Source: a virus. Taken from it: 64,000 nt of DNA. This document shows positions 7,418-27,903 of this stretch, piece after piece (the first letter of the stretch is position 1; the number at the start of each line of letters is the position of its first letter). Below the pieces are notes generated by a model that saw only the letters and a program-made list of their open reading frames with translations, searched no databases and was not told the origin of the DNA. The stretch covers positions 1 through 64,000 of IMG/VR virus record IMGVR_UViG_3300014913_000759; one strand, given 5' to 3'. The position numbers were made by a program, and so were the translations under genes.

Positions 7418-9937
7418 CTATATTTCGCACGATCCTCCCTTACATTGAATCGGTTCCACGAGTCTATCAAACTTATAATCATAACAAGGAACATCTACAT
7501 AAAAAGATTTATCCATAAACTCCAAAAGATTAGGTATCGATACTTTTCTAACATATATTGTTCTGTCCTTATCTTGTAAAGTGGTTTCAACGCCAATTTT
7601 CTCAAAACACGAACGTAATTTTTCTACAGATTTTTTATCGAAACCATCTACATGAAATCTTACGTTTGTTCCATCTTTTTTTACTGAGCCATCTCCTACA
7701 AACCACTGCCTTAGAATGGTTGGTGTAAACTCTAAGTCTTCTGGTACCGTCTTCTTACCATTGGGATACCATTTTTTATACAAAACACCCAACTCAACGC
7801 ACGAAATTGATTTGTATCTATAGTAGATGGCGCTGTTTTCTCGGTGTTTATACTCGTCAATATTTCCAGACCTCACTAATCCCTCTGAAGAAAATACTCT
7901 ATCCAGCCAACACACATATTCATAATATTTTGAAGCGTGCGTATAACAACCTAAGTGTCCGCCGTTAACTTTATTAATGGAGCCATCACCTAACAACTCA
8001 CCTTCTATAAGTTCTAACAACAAAGGACTTATGGGAATGCTTCTATCCAATTTAATCAACTCTTCTCCTTCAAATTTAACTATATCATAGATTGTGTTTT
8101 CGTGACAACCAAAAATATTTCCAATCTCCTCATAAGTCATACCTTTATTATGTAAAAACCTTATCGTTTCTATATCTGGTACAAATCTTATATTTTTTCC
8201 TTTACCTTCGCGTACAGGAATACCATACTCTTTCATCCGCAGGGCGACAAGTGCTTGTGAAACTCCCAATTTTTTTGCCACTTTATGCTGCGGCAATCTT
8301 TGGTTAGTATACAAGTCTTCTAATATTTCCTTACTGATGTCATACTTTCTGCCCTTTTTTTCAACAGGTTTGTTTAAAACCTGTTGATTCTTACAACCGT
8401 CTCTATAAATCGCTATTGCTTTTAACCCAAATTTGTATGCCAGCTTTAAAATTTTTGATACATCCTCGACTGTTGCTGAGTGTGGTAAATTAATCGTCTT
8501 AGAAATTGATTGATCTATCCACTTACCAACAGTTGCCATGACTCTCAAATGCTCTTCTGGTTTTATTTCATGCGCCGTTACCAGAGCCCTAGGATAGATG
8601 TCTTTATACTCATCTTTAATACTAAAAGAATCTTTTATAACCTTATCTATAATTTTAGATTCATATTCAAAAGCGTAATACGGCTCTATAGAAAAATAAG
8701 AGTCGGATATTCGAGATGTAGACCCACTAGGTGCTATAGTCAATCTGTTAGAGCAGCGCATATATTTGTATTTCCCCTTAAATGAAGAATCGTCAAAATC
8801 CTGAAAGTTACCGCGCTCTTCGCCCAAATTTATACAACTCTCTAAAGACACTCGATTAATAAAACAAAACAAATTATCAATCATATCTATACTTTCCTGC
8901 GAGCCATAACGCAGGCCTAGCTTTATAAGAAATGGTGCCAGGCCGAAAAAATACAAACCTTGCCGCCTAGTTCTTAATGCAAACTCTCTGATTTCTGGTA
9001 TAGGGTACATACACATGTCAATATTGTTGTCAAGAAATCGGTGGCCTATATGTATTAAATATTCGAGTTTGTCCCAATCAACTTTTTTCTTGTTTTTTGG
9101 TCCCTTCAATATTTTATCTAAATTTATACCAGATAAATTACAACTTTCATACGGCGACATGCATATTTCATGGCATGGGTTTACTGAGTCTATAGGATAC
9201 TTAGGCAACGTATTAAACTTATTCATGGTGTCTATGAACACTATATTCGGGTCGCCTGCTCTCCAGTTTGATTCGGAAACAGCTTCCCACAATTCAATAG
9301 ACCTAGGATCGTCAGAGAAAAGCTTACTCATAAAATCGTCCGTACAAACCACAGAAATATTTATATTAGACCATTTATCGTTGTTTCTCTTCATATTAAT
9401 AAATTTTTCTACATCTGGATGCTCTATATCAAGAATGGCTGCTCCTGCTCCACGCCTTTTTCCGCCCTGTTTTATTGTTTCTATCATCTGGTCGAATAAA
9501 GTTATAAAGGAACAAACGCCAGAGCTAAATCCACCCGTTGACAGCCGAGCATTCTCTTCTCTTAGATTAGAAAAATTCCACCCGACCCCGCCTCCGTACT
9601 TAAAAATCATAGCACTATCACAAAAAGTTTTAAGAATAGACTCCATGCTATCCTTTATTGGTAAGGCAAAGCAAGAAGACAACATCGGAAATTCGGTGCC
9701 AGCGTTAAACAAAATAGGCGATGCTGGCATAAATTCTTGGTTTATCATACATTCATAAAAAAGTTCTTTATATTTTTCATAATCTCCTTTATCATAATTA
9801 TATTCTGCTCTAGCTATAAAATTTGCGACACGCCGGAATAATTCCTCCGGCGTTTTTTCTATATGATTGCCTCGAATATCTCTTAAAAAATATCTCTCTT
9901 CGAGTATCTGCAAGGCATTTTTTGAAAATTTGCCCAT
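7418..9937 (-). CDS. nrdJ: Class II (B12-dependent) ribonucleotide reductase with in-frame LAGLIDADG insertion
   Basis: Residues 1-526 form the RNR core. Cys89 (SSCFALP) is one of the redox pair, NPCHE (Cys255, Glu257) is the radical and catalytic site, and APSGSTS with SIEPYYAFEY forms the phosphate-binding loop. No NrdB-like subunit is in the window, and the N-terminal arrangement fits adenosylcobalamin-dependent NrdJ. It reduces ribonucleotides to deoxyribonucleotides. Residues about 527-826 are foreign: two helix-turn-helix segments, then LAGLIDADG motifs at 641-654 and 742-752. The protein ends with the expected redox tail Cys832-x4-Cys837. No canonical intein splice residues are seen at the junctions. 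The ribosome site is GGAGG. Confidence 0.85.
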   Translation of the reverse strand: MGKFSKNALQILEERYFLRDIRGNHIEKTPEELFRRVANFIARAEYNYDKGDYEKYKELFYECMINQEFMPASPILFNAGTEFPMLSSCFALPIKDSMESILKTFCDSAMIFKYGGGVGWNFSNLREENARLSTGGFSSGVCSFITLFDQMIETIKQGGKRRGAGAAILDIEHPDVEKFINMKRNNDKWSNINISVVCTDDFMSKLFSDDPRSIELWEAVSESNWRAGDPNIVFIDTMNKFNTLPKYPIDSVNPCHEICMSPYESCNLSGINLDKILKGPKNKKKVDWDKLEYLIHIGHRFLDNNIDMCMYPIPEIREFALRTRRQGLYFFGLAPFLIKLGLRYGSQESIDMIDNLFCFINRVSLESCINLGEERGNFQDFDDSSFKGKYKYMRCSNRLTIAPSGSTSRISDSYFSIEPYYAFEYESKIIDKVIKDSFSIKDEYKDIYPRALVTAHEIKPEEHLRVMATVGKWIDQSISKTINLPHSATVEDVSKILKLAYKFGLKAIAIYRDGCKNQQVLNKPVEKKGRKYDISKEILEDLYTNQRLPQHKVAKKLGVSQALVALRMKEYGIPVREGKGKNIRFVPDIETIRFLHNKGMTYEEIGNIFGCHENTIYDIVKFEGEELIKLDRSIPISPLLLELIEGELLGDGSINKVNGGHLGCYTHASKYYEYVCWLDRVFSSEGLVRSGNIDEYKHRENSAIYYRYKSISCVELGVLYKKWYPNGKKTVPEDLEFTPTILRQWFVGDGSVKKDGTNVRFHVDGFDKKSVEKLRSCFEKIGVETTLQDKDRTIYVRKVSIPNLLEFMDKSFYVDVPCYDYKFDRLVEPIQCKGGSCEI
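7460..8359 (-). mobile_element. In-frame HTH + LAGLIDADG homing endonuclease segment inside nrdJ
   Basis: About 300 residues lie between LNKPVEK and VEPIQ of the reductase. The order is HTH 1 (KVAKKLGVSQALVALRMKEYG), HTH 2 (YEEIGNIFGCHENTIYDIV), then an endonuclease fold with GELLGDGSI and RQWFVGDGSV. This resembles the LAGLIDADG_2 type, more familiar from group I introns. An intein would begin with Cys or Ser and end His-Asn, but neither is seen at the inferred borders. The domains fill the insertion, leaving no room for a ribozyme core. Borders are estimated from the VE dipeptide present on both sides. Confidence 0.65.
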
Positions 9938-15977: not shown

Positions 15978-16931
15978 TTATCTCACCACCTTATTATTTA
16001 GTTCCTCCTCTAACTCTACCAGTGATACCGTGGCTGTGCCCATTTTGCCAACCACAATCCCTGCAGCTACATTAGATATATAAGCTGCTTCTTTCATTGT
16101 ATATCCGGCCGATACAGCGAGTGTAAATGCTGCTATAACCGTATCGCCTGCACCTGATACATCAAAAACTTCCTTGGCTTCTGTATCAATATGATAGAAA
16201 TCACGGTGTTCGTGCAAATCCATACCGTGTTTGCCTCTGGTTATAAGAAGCTGTGGCAACTCGGCTTGTTCCATTATAATTTCTGCGGCATCTATGATAT
16301 TCTCTGAGCCCGAAGCGGCTACTGCCTCTCGATAGTTCGGTGTGATTATGTTTGCGCCTCTATATTTTGAATAATCCGTGCCGTTTGGATCGACGGCCAC
16401 AAATACGTTGGCTTCCTCTGCCTGCTCCATTATGGAATGAAAAACACCAGGAGTTACGACGCCTTTTCCATAGTCAGATATAATGACGGCGTCGAATCGG
16501 CCGATCTGACCTACCAAGCCTAAGAAATAACTCTCAATATCCTCAGTTAAATCATATGTCATCTCTCTATCAACACGGACTACCTGTTGGTCTCTAGACA
16601 CTATCCGAGCCTTGCGCGTTGTGACGCGGCCGGGATCTGTGACCAAACACTCATCAATATTTTCAGTTCTTTCCAACATACCCATGAGTTTCTTGGCATT
16701 TGTGTCATCACCAATCACGCCGGCCATCATAACTTTGGCCCCCAATGCTGCTAGATTGTTCACGACATTGCCTGCACCACCAAGGACAGAGTGCTCACCC
16801 TCCACCAGAACTACCGGTACCGGTGCTTCAGGAGACATCCTATCAATTCTACCGTAGACATACTCATCTATCATTACGTCGCCAACTACAAGAATATGCT
16901 GTCTATCGAAACTATTTACTTTTGTAATCAT
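15978..16931 (-). CDS. hldE: PfkB-type sugar kinase, D-glycero-D-manno-heptose 7-phosphate kinase-like
   Basis: 317 residues matching the kinase half of HldE/RfaE. The N-terminus is VVGDVMIDEYVYGRIDRMSPEAPVPV, the substrate loop GGAGNVVNNLAALG, and the ATP/anion-hole motif DVSGAGDT (about 258-265). SPEAPVPV is characteristic of heptose-phosphate kinases. It would phosphorylate heptose 7-phosphate at C1 toward ADP-heptose. The adenylyltransferase half is absent, and no GmhA, GmhB or epimerase for this pathway is visible, so host enzymes would be needed. It overlaps the UDP-glucose dehydrogenase gene by 20 bases. A ribosome site (AAAGGAG) lies 12 bases upstream. Confidence 0.85.
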   Translation of the reverse strand: MITKVNSFDRQHILVVGDVMIDEYVYGRIDRMSPEAPVPVVLVEGEHSVLGGAGNVVNNLAALGAKVMMAGVIGDDTNAKKLMGMLERTENIDECLVTDPGRVTTRKARIVSRDQQVVRVDREMTYDLTEDIESYFLGLVGQIGRFDAVIISDYGKGVVTPGVFHSIMEQAEEANVFVAVDPNGTDYSKYRGANIITPNYREAVAASGSENIIDAAEIIMEQAELPQLLITRGKHGMDLHEHRDFYHIDTEAKEVFDVSGAGDTVIAAFTLAVSAGYTMKEAAYISNVAAGIVVGKMGTATVSLVELEEELNNKVVR

Positions 16932-18831
16932 TTTTAGACGTAGCTCCTTTTATGCCCAACCAATCTTGGACTTCTCGAACACGATTATTTACTTTGTCTG
17001 CTGCTTTGCACATATCTAAGTCAACACCGTTATCGTCGCCCCAATGATAAAAAGCCTTAACATCTTTTGGAAAACAATTATGTGTTAGTATATTATTTGC
17101 CACATATTTACCACTTTCAGTCTCTATGGCGAAAACTGTTTTAGGTGTATTTATAATCTCTACAGACTTTACTTTTGTTGCCCAGCCCGTCGGCATGATT
17201 TTACAGTTGGGCGAATCATAAAAAGTATCTGTCTTATACCTACAAACATCAAAATTTAGTCTGTTGGTCCAAGAACACACACGCTCGACTGCCGCACGTG
17301 TAGAAATCCTGATGCTCTTGCCGTTCCTGCTAATATTAGGATTTATACCGTTGGCCAACAGTATACTATCCATTTTCATTATCAAATCGGTGCTTTCTGA
17401 ATGGCATTCTATCGTCCCATCACAGTAACTACCATCGCCGTCGAGCCAACCACCAATTATATTCCTCGTTAGATGTTCACTTAGGGCTGTATATTTTATA
17501 TTTTTGTCATGTGCATTATGGCCCAAATTTAACCTTTCAAACAATCTATACAGCCACATGGATCGTACACGCACAATCCAACAAACAGACCTACCAAAAG
17601 TGCCGTCAGTTGCTTGCAGACGTTTGTAAGGATTCAATCCATATTTAGACAAAGTATTACACACCTCATTGGCTAAGTGTTCCTCATGCTTTCCAAAACT
17701 GAAATAAACCTCTTCTTTTTTATTATATATATTTGAACAGCCCTCAGCTAAATACAAACCAATAACTCGGCATATAGGCTCATCTAAACCTACATATTCA
17801 TGCCATACTTTAACATAACCGTTGGGCCTTTTGCCCATAGCAATTTCTACCGAACCAAGTGTATTTTTTTCTGATGGAACATACAACCAACTATCATCTG
17901 TTATCTCGCACAATTTTTTTTCTTCAACATCTACGAAATCTTTAGTAATCATGTGTATGTGATCTTCTGACCCTTCCAACATTCTTCCGTTGCTCACAAT
18001 CTTTATTGTTCTATCCACCAGTCTAGATGATAAACCAGTTACTCTGGTATAGCTTGTCCCATCAAACACCAGCATACCTGGCGAAACGTCTTCAATATTC
18101 ACAAACTCATGTGTGTTTGTTATGAGCTTCGTTCCTGCCACCAAACACTTGCCCCCATAACCTCGATGGCCATCGTGGCCCGGCACATCTGCGTGGCTGT
18201 TTCCAATACGTTGATCGGAAAGAAACATCTTCTTCATATCATCATAAGGAACATTGATTTTCTCACACACATCATATATCTCGTTTAAGAAGGACACCTT
18301 TACAGCAAAGAAACAATTACACATATATTTAACCGCCTCAGCGCCTTCCCAAGTAGTATGATAAATAGGTGTGTGAACAAACCGAACCCTAAAAAGCTCT
18401 TCCAATATCTCCGTCACGCCGCGATCGCCGCCGAATATAAAACGTGCTGAGTTTATGAAGTCCAATTTGGCCTGACGTTCCGTCAGAAACTCTGGCATAA
18501 AAACAAAATCGTGGTCATCATATTTTTCAGCATACCTTCTGGTCGTTCCTGGGATAGCTGTGCTTCTTAAAACAATAATCTTACGTTCTTTTGCCACACG
18601 AACTATACTTTCTACGGCATCATCCATACTAGAAAGGTCTTGGCTGCCATCATCATTCATGGGTGTAGGAACACCCACAAAGATATAAGGTGTAGAATTT
18701 ACTGTGTCACCTAAAGAATCATATGAATTATCATACTTGTCGTAAATCTTAACGTTAGCATGTAGATAGAAGCCGTGAGTCATTGCTCTACCTAAAAATC
18801 CAAACCCAATTATACCAATAGTTGGTTTCAT
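16912..18831 (-). CDS. ugd: UDP-glucose/GDP-mannose dehydrogenase interrupted by an intein
   Basis: 639 residues before splicing. The host protein is residues 1-228 joined to 586-639, 282 residues in all. The Rossmann motif is GIIGFGFLG, then VPTPMNDDGSQD, and the catalytic loop GYGGK|CFPKD, where Cys586 is both the enzyme's nucleophile and the intein's +1 residue. The enzyme would oxidise UDP-glucose to UDP-glucuronate. Only 53 residues follow the catalytic Cys, against roughly 130 in bacterial Ugd (known of family), so the C-terminal substrate-binding domain is largely missing. A GGAGG site lies 10 bases before ATG 18831. Confidence 0.88.
   Translation of the reverse strand: MKPTIGIIGFGFLGRAMTHGFYLHANVKIYDKYDNSYDSLGDTVNSTPYIFVGVPTPMNDDGSQDLSSMDDAVESIVRVAKERKIIVLRSTAIPGTTRRYAEKYDDHDFVFMPEFLTERQAKLDFINSARFIFGGDRGVTEILEELFRVRFVHTPIYHTTWEGAEAVKYMCNCFFAVKVSFLNEIYDVCEKINVPYDDMKKMFLSDQRIGNSHADVPGHDGHRGYGGKCLVAGTKLITNTHEFVNIEDVSPGMLVFDGTSYTRVTGLSSRLVDRTIKIVSNGRMLEGSEDHIHMITKDFVDVEEKKLCEITDDSWLYVPSEKNTLGSVEIAMGKRPNGYVKVWHEYVGLDEPICRVIGLYLAEGCSNIYNKKEEVYFSFGKHEEHLANEVCNTLSKYGLNPYKRLQATDGTFGRSVCWIVRVRSMWLYRLFERLNLGHNAHDKNIKYTALSEHLTRNIIGGWLDGDGSYCDGTIECHSESTDLIMKMDSILLANGINPNISRNGKSIRISTRAAVERVCSWTNRLNFDVCRYKTDTFYDSPNCKIMPTGWATKVKSVEIINTPKTVFAIETESGKYVANNILTHNCFPKDVKAFYHWGDDNGVDLDMCKAADKVNNRVREVQDWLGIKGATSKNDYKSK
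17077..18147 (-). mobile_element. Intein with LAGLIDADG endonuclease in the ugd active site
   Basis: 357 residues (229-585 of the precursor). The N-terminal splice block is CLVAGTKLITN. Block B is EGSEDHIHMI. The C-terminal block is KYVANNILTHN followed by Cys, so all the splice residues (Cys1, block B His, His-Asn, Cys+1) are intact. The endonuclease motifs VIGLYLAEGCS (about 355-365) and IIGGWLDGDGS (457-468) keep acidic residues, so homing activity is likely. Insertion is exactly before the dehydrogenase catalytic cysteine, so no active enzyme forms without splicing. Confidence 0.93.
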
Positions 18832-26122: not shown

Positions 26123-27035
26123 TACAATACACCTCGCTTGCTTCGGACATAAACCGCGCCATAATAATTTGTTTTATACCGTGTAGGACAACCTCAGGGT
26201 CGATATCTCTACACTGCCAATCCTTACAATCCTTTTGCCAGCGTCTTGTTTTCTGACAAGGTCTACATTCCAGATCGTCTCTGGTAATAATGGTTGAATA
26301 CTTGTGGAAACGTTCGTCATAATTCTTCTTAATAGAAGTAGCCGTAAATATTACAATATTGTCTGTTTCCAGGGCATTAGATGCGTGATACATTCCGGAG
26401 TCGTTTCCGACGAAAAGCCTAGCATTCTTGATAAGACCTAGACTTTCCTGCAGGCTAAGACCTGTTCTATCTTCAGTGCCTTCAATATATTCTTCTTTGG
26501 CGCCGATGGAACAAACTTTGACACCCTCTAAATATTCAACAACTTTTTCGTAGTGAGTGTAGCTTTTCACCGACCAATTTGCGCTTCCATACCTATTATA
26601 ACCATTGTGCATGACAATGTCAAATTTTTCTTCTGTCTTTCCATATGCACAGATGCCGTGCCAAAGAATATTCTCTTCCTTGACACCGAGGTCTCTAGCG
26701 ATGTCCATATAGGTGTCCACTTCGCTGCGATCCACGCTCAGCGGCTGGATCTTGTTAAGAAGTGCCATGCGTGCGAATGGACCCTGACCGACTATATTCT
26801 GTGTCCACATAGTAGACACGTAACCGTCGTACGAAAACATATCCAGTTTGTTGATGTTCTGACCAACCACCCACTTGCCGACATACGGAATAAGCCTGTC
26901 TTTTATTCCGTAGCTACCATGCGCGTGCCAGAAGTCGACCTTGTGGCCGAGAACCTCAGTAAGTGTTCTAATTACTGGAATACACTGGATGATGTTTCCT
27001 ATTCCCTCTCCGTGGCAAAAAAGAAGTTTAGCCAT
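26082..27035 (-). CDS. Glycosyltransferase family 9 (heptosyltransferase-like)
   Basis: 317 residues from ATG 27035; alternative upstream starts at 27047 or 27098 exist. AKLLFCHGEGIGNIIQCIPVI is the GT9 N-terminal loop, and LFVGNDSGMYHASNALETDNIV is the ADP-heptose-binding signature. GT9 enzymes transfer heptose to lipopolysaccharide core or related glycans. This agrees with the heptose-phosphate kinase at 15978-16931. The C-terminus has four cysteines (CRPCQKTRRWQKDCKDWQC), a pattern shared with other GT9 proteins. Confidence 0.85.
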   Translation of the reverse strand: MAKLLFCHGEGIGNIIQCIPVIRTLTEVLGHKVDFWHAHGSYGIKDRLIPYVGKWVVGQNINKLDMFSYDGYVSTMWTQNIVGQGPFARMALLNKIQPLSVDRSEVDTYMDIARDLGVKEENILWHGICAYGKTEEKFDIVMHNGYNRYGSANWSVKSYTHYEKVVEYLEGVKVCSIGAKEEYIEGTEDRTGLSLQESLGLIKNARLFVGNDSGMYHASNALETDNIVIFTATSIKKNYDERFHKYSTIITRDDLECRPCQKTRRWQKDCKDWQCRDIDPEVVLHGIKQIIMARFMSEASEVYCNEPIDAPRGSTEG

Positions 27036-27903
27036 AATTGTAACCATACCTCCGGTGTAATATTGCTCTGTACCAAGCCTTGTGCCATCTCCTATCAAAA
27101 TTTGCTCTGGCGTTGCAAGAAGTACAAAGTGTTATCAAGTTTTCCGGTCCACAACTTTTCTTGTTATAATCAATGTGGTGTATATTCAAAGTTTTATAAT
27201 TATTACGGCAATCGGGGTTCAAGCATTTATGGCCATCTCTGTCCTTAATACTTTCTTTGTACTCTTTGTCCAACCAAATATCACAGTAAGGCTCACAAGT
27301 AATGCCACCCTTCCAATTGTGGTGTGTCGAGCCACTACTACGCTCAAACCAACATGCCCTACATCTAAAACCCCTAACCCAATCATTCCACGTAGTAGAT
27401 GCTGTATGTCCGTTGCTACAAATATAATATAATTTTGTTTTGTTATTTTTATAGGTCTTAGAAAGTAGTTTACATCCCTCTTTCCCAAAACTTCGCCTGA
27501 CAAACTCTATACTATGTTTTGCTGTGCCTGAGCATACAGCGCAGCGGGCGCCGTTCTTCCAAGAAACCCAACTAATTCTATATTCGTGCCCTTCGGAACA
27601 TATATATCTAAGTTTTTGTGTGTTGTTTTTATATTCGGTATTCAACAACATATAACCCTCAGAACTAAACGCACTTCTAACTGTTTCTATACCTAGCGAC
27701 ATTTTTGGTGCTGCTTTTTTATAACCACAGTAACGGCACCTCTGACCCCTCTTCCACCTATGCCAATTTGTACTACTTTTGTGGCCTTTTGGGCAGACGT
27801 ACTTCAACACAGACTCGCAGTTTTTATACTCGTCTGTCAAAAGGGTATAACCCTCCTTCTTAAACTGATCTCTTACAAACCCATATGTTAGTCTTCTAGG
27901 CAT
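27028..27903 (-). CDS. HNH homing endonuclease with three zinc-ribbon repeats
   Basis: 291 residues. Three modules of about 50 residues (9-59, 74-124, 133-184) share an F..EGY.LL..EYKNN..KL.Y.C..GH.....W..G.RC..C pattern, each with a probable Cys4/His zinc site for DNA binding. The HNH nuclease domain follows at about 215-275 (CLNPDCRNN, LNIHHIDYNKKS, NLITLCTSCN). The gene stands alone, interposed between two glycosyltransferase genes with 8-base overlaps, as expected for a free-standing homing endonuclease. Confidence 0.85.
   Translation of the reverse strand: MPRRLTYGFVRDQFKKEGYTLLTDEYKNCESVLKYVCPKGHKSSTNWHRWKRGQRCRYCGYKKAAPKMSLGIETVRSAFSSEGYMLLNTEYKNNTQKLRYICSEGHEYRISWVSWKNGARCAVCSGTAKHSIEFVRRSFGKEGCKLLSKTYKNNKTKLYYICSNGHTASTTWNDWVRGFRCRACWFERSSGSTHHNWKGGITCEPYCDIWLDKEYKESIKDRDGHKCLNPDCRNNYKTLNIHHIDYNKKSCGPENLITLCTSCNARANFDRRWHKAWYRAILHRRYGYNYG

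What the first reader, a model, noticed from the sequence alone, without database searches (positions are those of the whole stretch)
7460..8359. LAGLIDADG endonuclease inserted in frame in RNR with no recognisable intein splice junctions
The class II RNR frame runs unbroken through an HTH+LAGLIDADG segment of about 300 residues into the correct C-terminal redox tail (Cys-x4-Cys). Neither border shows an intein Cys/Ser or the His-Asn end, and the domains leave no room for a group I ribozyme. The endonuclease may thus be carried as a permanent fusion in the flexible tail linker, with RNR still working, which would be a new way for a homing gene to persist. A highly diverged intein is the alternative.
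Basis: partly seen in the sequence, partly recalled or inferred. Interest (0 to 1): 0.8.

Follow-up and report, generated by a model that had tools for sequence, protein, structure and literature searches.

The report
Homing endonuclease fused inside ribonucleotide reductase
A virus carries a selfish DNA-cutting gene in frame inside the tail of the enzyme that makes its DNA building blocks, with no sign of the usual protein or RNA splicing that would remove it; the arrangement is unusual but so far known from one genome only.

Summary
The minus-strand ORF 7418-9937 (839 codons, one 92-kb virus record) is a class II ribonucleotide reductase (NrdJ). Its catalytic core (residues 1-526) and C-terminal redox tail (C832-x4-C837-E-I) are separated by about 300 in-frame residues (527-826, bases 7460-8359). 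Uninterrupted viral homologues of the same short-tail type have only 12-17 residues there (31 in one). The insert is a complete I-SceI-like LAGLIDADG_2 homing endonuclease with two N-terminal helix-turn-helices and both catalytic aspartates. The relatives found are autonomous ORFs; none is fused to a host protein. No intein profile matches, although the same scan rings on a real intein elsewhere in this virus. About 17 codons lie outside the two proteins, too few for a group I ribozyme. Best reading: a free-standing-type homing gene landed in the flexible tail linker and is translated as one unspliced chain. Whether the fused reductase works is unproven: only about 4-7 residues tether the tail to the folded nuclease, and an internal Shine-Dalgarno/TTG start could give a separate nuclease. 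New variant of a known kind (compare phage Aeh1 mobE in nrdA).

The parts
8360..9937 (-). class II RNR (NrdJ) core, residues 1-526; catalytic C89, N253-P-C255-H-E257, C266
   Evidence: Pfam and NCBIfam NrdJ_Z above cut-off; invariant catalytic residues; fold match to Thermotoga NrdJ
7460..8359 (-). in-frame insert, residues 527-826: complete HTH-HTH-LAGLIDADG_2 homing endonuclease
   Evidence: absent from uninterrupted homologues; relatives are autonomous ORFs; predicted fold mean pLDDT 87, I-SceI match
8225..8332 (-). first helix-turn-helix region, residues 536-571
   Evidence: Pfam HTH_50; helices in model
8051..8173 (-). second helix-turn-helix region, residues 589-629
   Evidence: Pfam HTH_23; helices in model
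7544..8014 (-). LAGLIDADG_2 domain, residues 642-798, catalytic D651 and D749
   Evidence: PF03161 E 1e-20; both Asp invariant in 30 sequences
7418..7459 (-). RNR C-terminal redox tail, VEPIQ-C832-KGGS-C837-EI, and stop
   Evidence: matches C-x4-C-x-[ILV] ends of nine short-tail viral RNRs
8361..8387 (-). perfect 11-bp inverted repeat with 5-nt loop on the 5' border of the insert (role unknown)
8355..8361 (-). A7 run (A AAA AAG in frame) at the 5' border; weak lead for slippage
8057..8070 (-). possible internal start: AAGGAG, 5 nt, TTG (codon 627), between HTH part and nuclease domain
   Evidence: 3 of 678 internal start codons in listed genes have so strong a site

Best explanation
A LAGLIDADG_2 homing endonuclease of a kind that normally occurs as a free-standing viral ORF has landed in the disordered linker between the barrel and the redox tail of a short-tail class II RNR, and is translated in frame as one unspliced chain. 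It has lost its own start and stop; both junctions keep the RNR frame. The RNR core folds independently, the nuclease sits in the linker, and the tail cysteines (C832/C837), which by analogy re-reduce the active-site pair (C89/C266), stay at the C-terminus. The nuclease would cut insert-free RNR genes of co-infecting viruses and be copied in by repair; being in frame in a tolerant linker takes the place of splicing. Shown: anatomy, frame, domain identity, borders, no intein profile, no room for a ribozyme. Inferred: single-chain translation, nuclease activity, homing into RNR, retained reductase activity.
For: Unbroken 839-codon frame. Core over the NrdJ_Z cut-off with catalytic residues intact. 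Tail matches nine uninterrupted short-tail RNRs with 12-17 (one 31) linker residues. The insert spans a whole nuclease from leader to YDYKF and its relatives are autonomous ORFs. Both catalytic Asp invariant; I-SceI-like fold. No intein profile with a positive control in the same virus. Linker residues 525-543 have low model confidence, as expected for disorder. Uniform base composition.
Against: Only one example. The last nuclease helix is predicted to reach about residue 827, leaving 4-7 residues before C832, less than in any homologue. The RNR core departs at 11 of 64 near-invariant positions. A strong internal ribosome site suggests separate nuclease synthesis. No expression data.
Confidence: 0.6

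Rival explanations
1. Separate products from one frame: the nuclease is also or mainly made alone by initiation at TTG627 (LAGLIDADG domain plus RNR tail), and an RNR core is made alone by linker proteolysis or slippage at the A7 run on the 5' border, where both other frames stop within about 12 codons. In effect a gene in pieces.
For: AAGGAG-5nt-TTG627 is among 3 of 678 internal sites so strong; HTH-less relatives exist; hairpin at the border; viral class II RNRs without a tail exist (L010, L017).
Against: Sites found after the fact; A AAA AAG occurs 5 times in 54 genes and has no downstream hairpin; nearly all other genes start with ATG; the full frame is kept open through both borders.
Confidence: 0.2
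2. The RNR is inactivated or on the way out; the insertion is a recent passenger in a dispensable gene.
For: Most divergent core of 81 sequences, 11-13 odd conserved positions; short tether between nuclease and tail.
Against: All catalytic residues and the tail are intact and there is no stop or frameshift; its relative L216 has a nearly equal branch.
Confidence: 0.12
3. A cryptic self-splicing element: a highly diverged intein, or a tiny or overlapping group I intron.
For: Splicing is the usual way such genes persist in RNR (PMC3653736); a relative lies in the split DNA polymerase locus of phage phiNIT1; Rfam can miss introns.
Against: No intein profile or border residues; about 17 unassigned codons leave no room for a ribozyme; no Rfam match at E<=5.
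Confidence: 0.04
4. Assembly or binning error that joins a nuclease to an RNR.
For: The source is a metagenomic virus record and no independent genome carries the fusion.
Against: Two joins, both in frame, the second restoring the proper RNR tail; uniform composition.
Confidence: 0.04

Closest known systems
Aeromonas phage Aeh1 nrdA interrupted by mobE (Friedrich et al. 2007, as cited in PMC3653736 and PMC2988022)
   Same: A homing endonuclease inserted in an RNR gene without an intron, with the RNR reported to remain functional.
   Different: There mobE (HNH) splits nrdA (class I) into two genes; here a LAGLIDADG nuclease is in frame in a class II RNR and the gene stays one ORF.
RNR inteins, e.g. 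Moorella phage MTATph1 RNR (L002)
   Same: An in-frame LAGLIDADG-type insertion in a viral RNR.
   Different: Inteins have Hint splicing blocks and sit at conserved active-site positions; here no Hint and a variable linker.
Free-standing LAGLIDADG_2 nucleases of viruses (L145, L160, phiNIT1 orf197b)
   Same: Same domain order and C-terminal CY-x-YK end; nearest relatives by sequence.
   Different: They have their own start and stop; this one has neither.
WHO elements of Torulaspora yeasts (PMC7282813)
   Same: LAGLIDADG homing elements that do not rely on splicing.
   Different: WHO lies downstream of the host gene and is expressed separately; here it is inside the host frame.

Membership tests
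Class II ribonucleotide reductase (NrdJ) | Profile match above curated cut-off | tested here: met
   TIGR02504 492 bits, cut-off 400
Class II ribonucleotide reductase (NrdJ) | Active-site cysteines and N-x-C-x-E | tested here: met
   C89, N253-P-C255-H-E257, C266
Class II ribonucleotide reductase (NrdJ) | Adenosylcobalamin-dependent activity | not testable with these tools
   needs an enzyme assay
LAGLIDADG_2 homing endonuclease | Family profile and two LAGLIDADG motifs with catalytic Asp | tested here: met
   PF03161 E 1e-20; D651 and D749 invariant; I-SceI fold
LAGLIDADG_2 homing endonuclease | Site-specific cleavage and homing | not testable with these tools
   no insert-free allele or activity data
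Intein | Hint blocks, N-terminal Cys/Ser and C-terminal His-Asn plus Cys/Ser/Thr | tested here: not met
   no profile match at E<=1; border residues absent; positive control in P0010
Group I intron with nuclease ORF | Ribozyme core flanking or containing the ORF | tested here: not met
   about 17 unassigned codons; no Rfam match (Rfam sensitivity limited)
Free-standing homing endonuclease gene | Own start and stop codons | tested here: not met
   open frame continues from and into RNR; TTG627 is only a possible nested start
Genes-in-pieces RNR (Aeh1 type) | Host gene divided into separate ORFs by the nuclease gene | tested here: not met
   one ORF of 839 codons

The most novel reading that the evidence does not exclude
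An active homing endonuclease persists as a permanent domain inside a working host enzyme with neither RNA nor protein splicing: in-frame insertion into a tolerant flexible linker as an alternative to introns, inteins, intergenic insertion and split genes.
Probability: 0.42. Interest if true: 0.75.

Novelty: new variant of a known kind. Interest (0 to 1): 0.6.

Why it matters
Homing genes inside essential coding sequences are thought to need a splicing device, or else they split the gene. A whole free-standing-type nuclease carried in frame in the redox-tail linker of RNR would, if the enzyme works, be another solution: tolerance by fusion. It might also hint at how intein-like arrangements begin. 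The case can be tested by expressing one gene, and it asks how much freedom the RNR tail really needs.

Tried and rejected
Close relatives of the fused protein in viral contigs: none, nor of the insert alone. DNA pattern for the exact tail CKGGSCEI: no hits. Intein: rejected by profiles and borders. Group I intron: rejected mainly for lack of space, because Rfam found nothing at the phiNIT1 locus either. Target-site duplication at the borders: best repeats are 5 of 6 bases, no better than chance. Programmed -1 frameshift at A AAA AAG: 5 such heptamers in 54 genes, so only a weak lead. An intact allele in a related virus: L170 (54% identical DNA polymerase, similar gene neighbourhood) has a different, Zn-tail class II RNR there, so it gives no empty site. 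A joint RNR + nuclease alignment for one structure prediction was misaligned; separate alignments were used. RNR decay inferred from odd conserved positions: not conclusive, because its clade is divergent too.

Full report
OBSERVATION. The minus-strand ORF 7418-9937 encodes 839 residues. The record (G000) is a 92,464-base virus contig with one match to this protein. Pfam assigns the RNR N-terminal and barrel domains to residues 3-511 and LAGLIDADG_2 to 642-798, with two helix-turn-helix regions between. NCBIfam places the core over the cut-off of NrdJ_Z, class II RNR. The model of the whole chain matches Thermotoga NrdJ (1xje, 3o0q); the model of the insert matches I-SceI and I-WcaI.

BORDERS. 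Two scans of viral contigs, each keeping its best 80 (overlapping sets), gave class II RNR loci. Most have a long Zn-finger type tail, but nine (L034, L061, L069, L081, L201, L214, L216, L231, L251) end in a short tail C-x4-C-x-[ILV], as the window protein does (C832-KGGS-C837-E-I). They have 12-17 residues (31 in L081) between the barrel end and the first cysteine. In a tree the window RNR groups with L214 and L251 (support 0.97) and then L216, all short-tailed and uninterrupted. The alignment puts the extra block at about residues 527-826, i.e. bases 7460-8359. Joining the flanks at the Val-Glu found on both sides gives a 17-residue linker, the commonest length. The tail is therefore very probably genuine.

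THE INSERT IS A WHOLE NUCLEASE. Scans found 28 and 42 viral loci (overlapping) and 5 cellular loci encoding relatives of the insert. The open frames carrying them, mostly 200-450 residues, are autonomous nucleases, many with N-terminal HTH repeats, and most end in a CY-x-YK[WF]-like motif plus a short tail. Nearly all of the insert aligns with them, including the N-terminal leader (KKGRKYDISKEILEDLY against MTVKGTQKYEIAKEELNRLY in L160) and the C-terminal YDYKF. L145 and L160 lie about 140-160 bases after an ORF that looks like a capsid gene (identified by reading the ORF only). No relative is fused to a recognisable host protein, and no RNR match was found in the nuclease loci of the first scan. 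One virus (contig of L098 and L214) has both a short-tail RNR and a free nuclease, about 5 kb apart. Both catalytic aspartates (D651, D749) are invariant among 30 sequences.

NO SPLICING DEVICE FOUND. No intein profile matches P0001 at E<=1. The same library finds Intein_splicing in the UDP-glucose dehydrogenase-like gene 16912-18831 of this virus (E 7e-5, below the curated cut-off), which shows canonical borders (GGK/CLVAG...LTHN/CFPKD). Rfam finds no intron at E<=5; this is weak evidence, since Rfam also found nothing at the phiNIT1 locus, where a relative lies between the parts of a split DNA polymerase gene. The strong argument is space: about 10 codons before and 7 after the nuclease are unassigned, far below any known self-splicing intron (general knowledge).

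MECHANISM. The simplest reading is one unspliced chain of about 97 kDa. The RNR core model is confident up to about residue 520, and residues 525-543 have very low confidence. The insert alone is predicted as an independent fold (mean pLDDT 87). The last predicted nuclease helix runs to about residue 827, so only 4-7 residues separate the folded nuclease from C832, while tails of homologues have 12 or more. Whether C832/C837 can still reach the active-site pair is open. Options are docking through the flexible upstream linker, service of a neighbouring subunit, or direct reduction: L010 and L017 seem to have no tail at all.

SEPARATE PRODUCTS? An internal AAGGAG-5nt-TTG at codon 627 lies between the second HTH and the nuclease domain. 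Only 3 of 678 internal start codons in the listed genes have so strong a site, and relatives without HTH exist. A perfect 11-bp inverted repeat sits on the 5' border (8361-8387), one of two in 64 kb with none in five simulations. RNA hairpins control mobE in Aeh1 (PMC2988022), so a regulatory role is possible. The A7 site beside it is not unusual. These were found after the fact and are leads only.

STATE OF THE RNR. All catalytic cysteines and the N-x-C-x-E motif are present, but 11 of 64 near-invariant positions differ, more than in any other sequence of the set, and the terminal branch is the longest. L216 of the same clade has an almost equal branch, so this may be lineage history rather than decay.

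KNOWN CASES. Phage RNR genes often carry introns and inteins; Aeh1 nrdA is split by mobE without an intron and still works (PMC3653736; PMC2988022). Phage homing genes cluster near RNR and other essential genes (PMC10448857). WHO elements are LAGLIDADG homing elements without splicing, but outside the host frame (PMC7282813). I found no report of a homing endonuclease kept in frame inside an RNR without a splicing domain, within an open-access library only.

VERDICT. Fusion without splicing is well supported by sequence; a working fused RNR and long-term persistence are not shown. New variant of a known kind, interest 0.6.

Noticed in passing
window 16912-18831 (-): UDP-glucose dehydrogenase-like gene with a canonical LAGLIDADG intein (GGK/CLVAG...LTHN/CFPKD); used as positive control.
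   Followed up: partly
window 27028-27903 (-): Likely second homing-type gene: CapR homology domain (Pfam) and an HNH-like C-terminus by eye.
   Followed up: no
L170:12926-15436: A related virus (54% DNA polymerase, similar gene order) has a different, Zn-tail class II RNR in the corresponding place: RNR exchange at one locus.
   Followed up: partly
L010:2992-4698, L017:17-1657: Viral class II RNRs that stop right after the barrel (DEQVLSVGS/G) with no redox tail and no tail ORF seen just downstream.
   Followed up: partly
L214:2498-4230: A 499-aa short-tail class II RNR overlaps a gene that looks like a glutaredoxin (CTHC motif, by eye), its possible reductant.
   Followed up: no
L145:3498-4385, L160:3492-4421: Free-standing LAGLIDADG_2 nucleases just after an apparent major capsid gene, in two viruses with similar gene order.
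   Followed up: partly
L002:2660-5011 (Moorella phage MTATph1): RNR with an apparent intein placed exactly before the catalytic cysteine (NP/C...HN/CGE); annotated only as RNR large subunit.
   Followed up: no
L153:3435-5167, L164:2133-5596: Two (L153) and three (L164) LAGLIDADG nuclease open frames close together in one contig.
   Followed up: no
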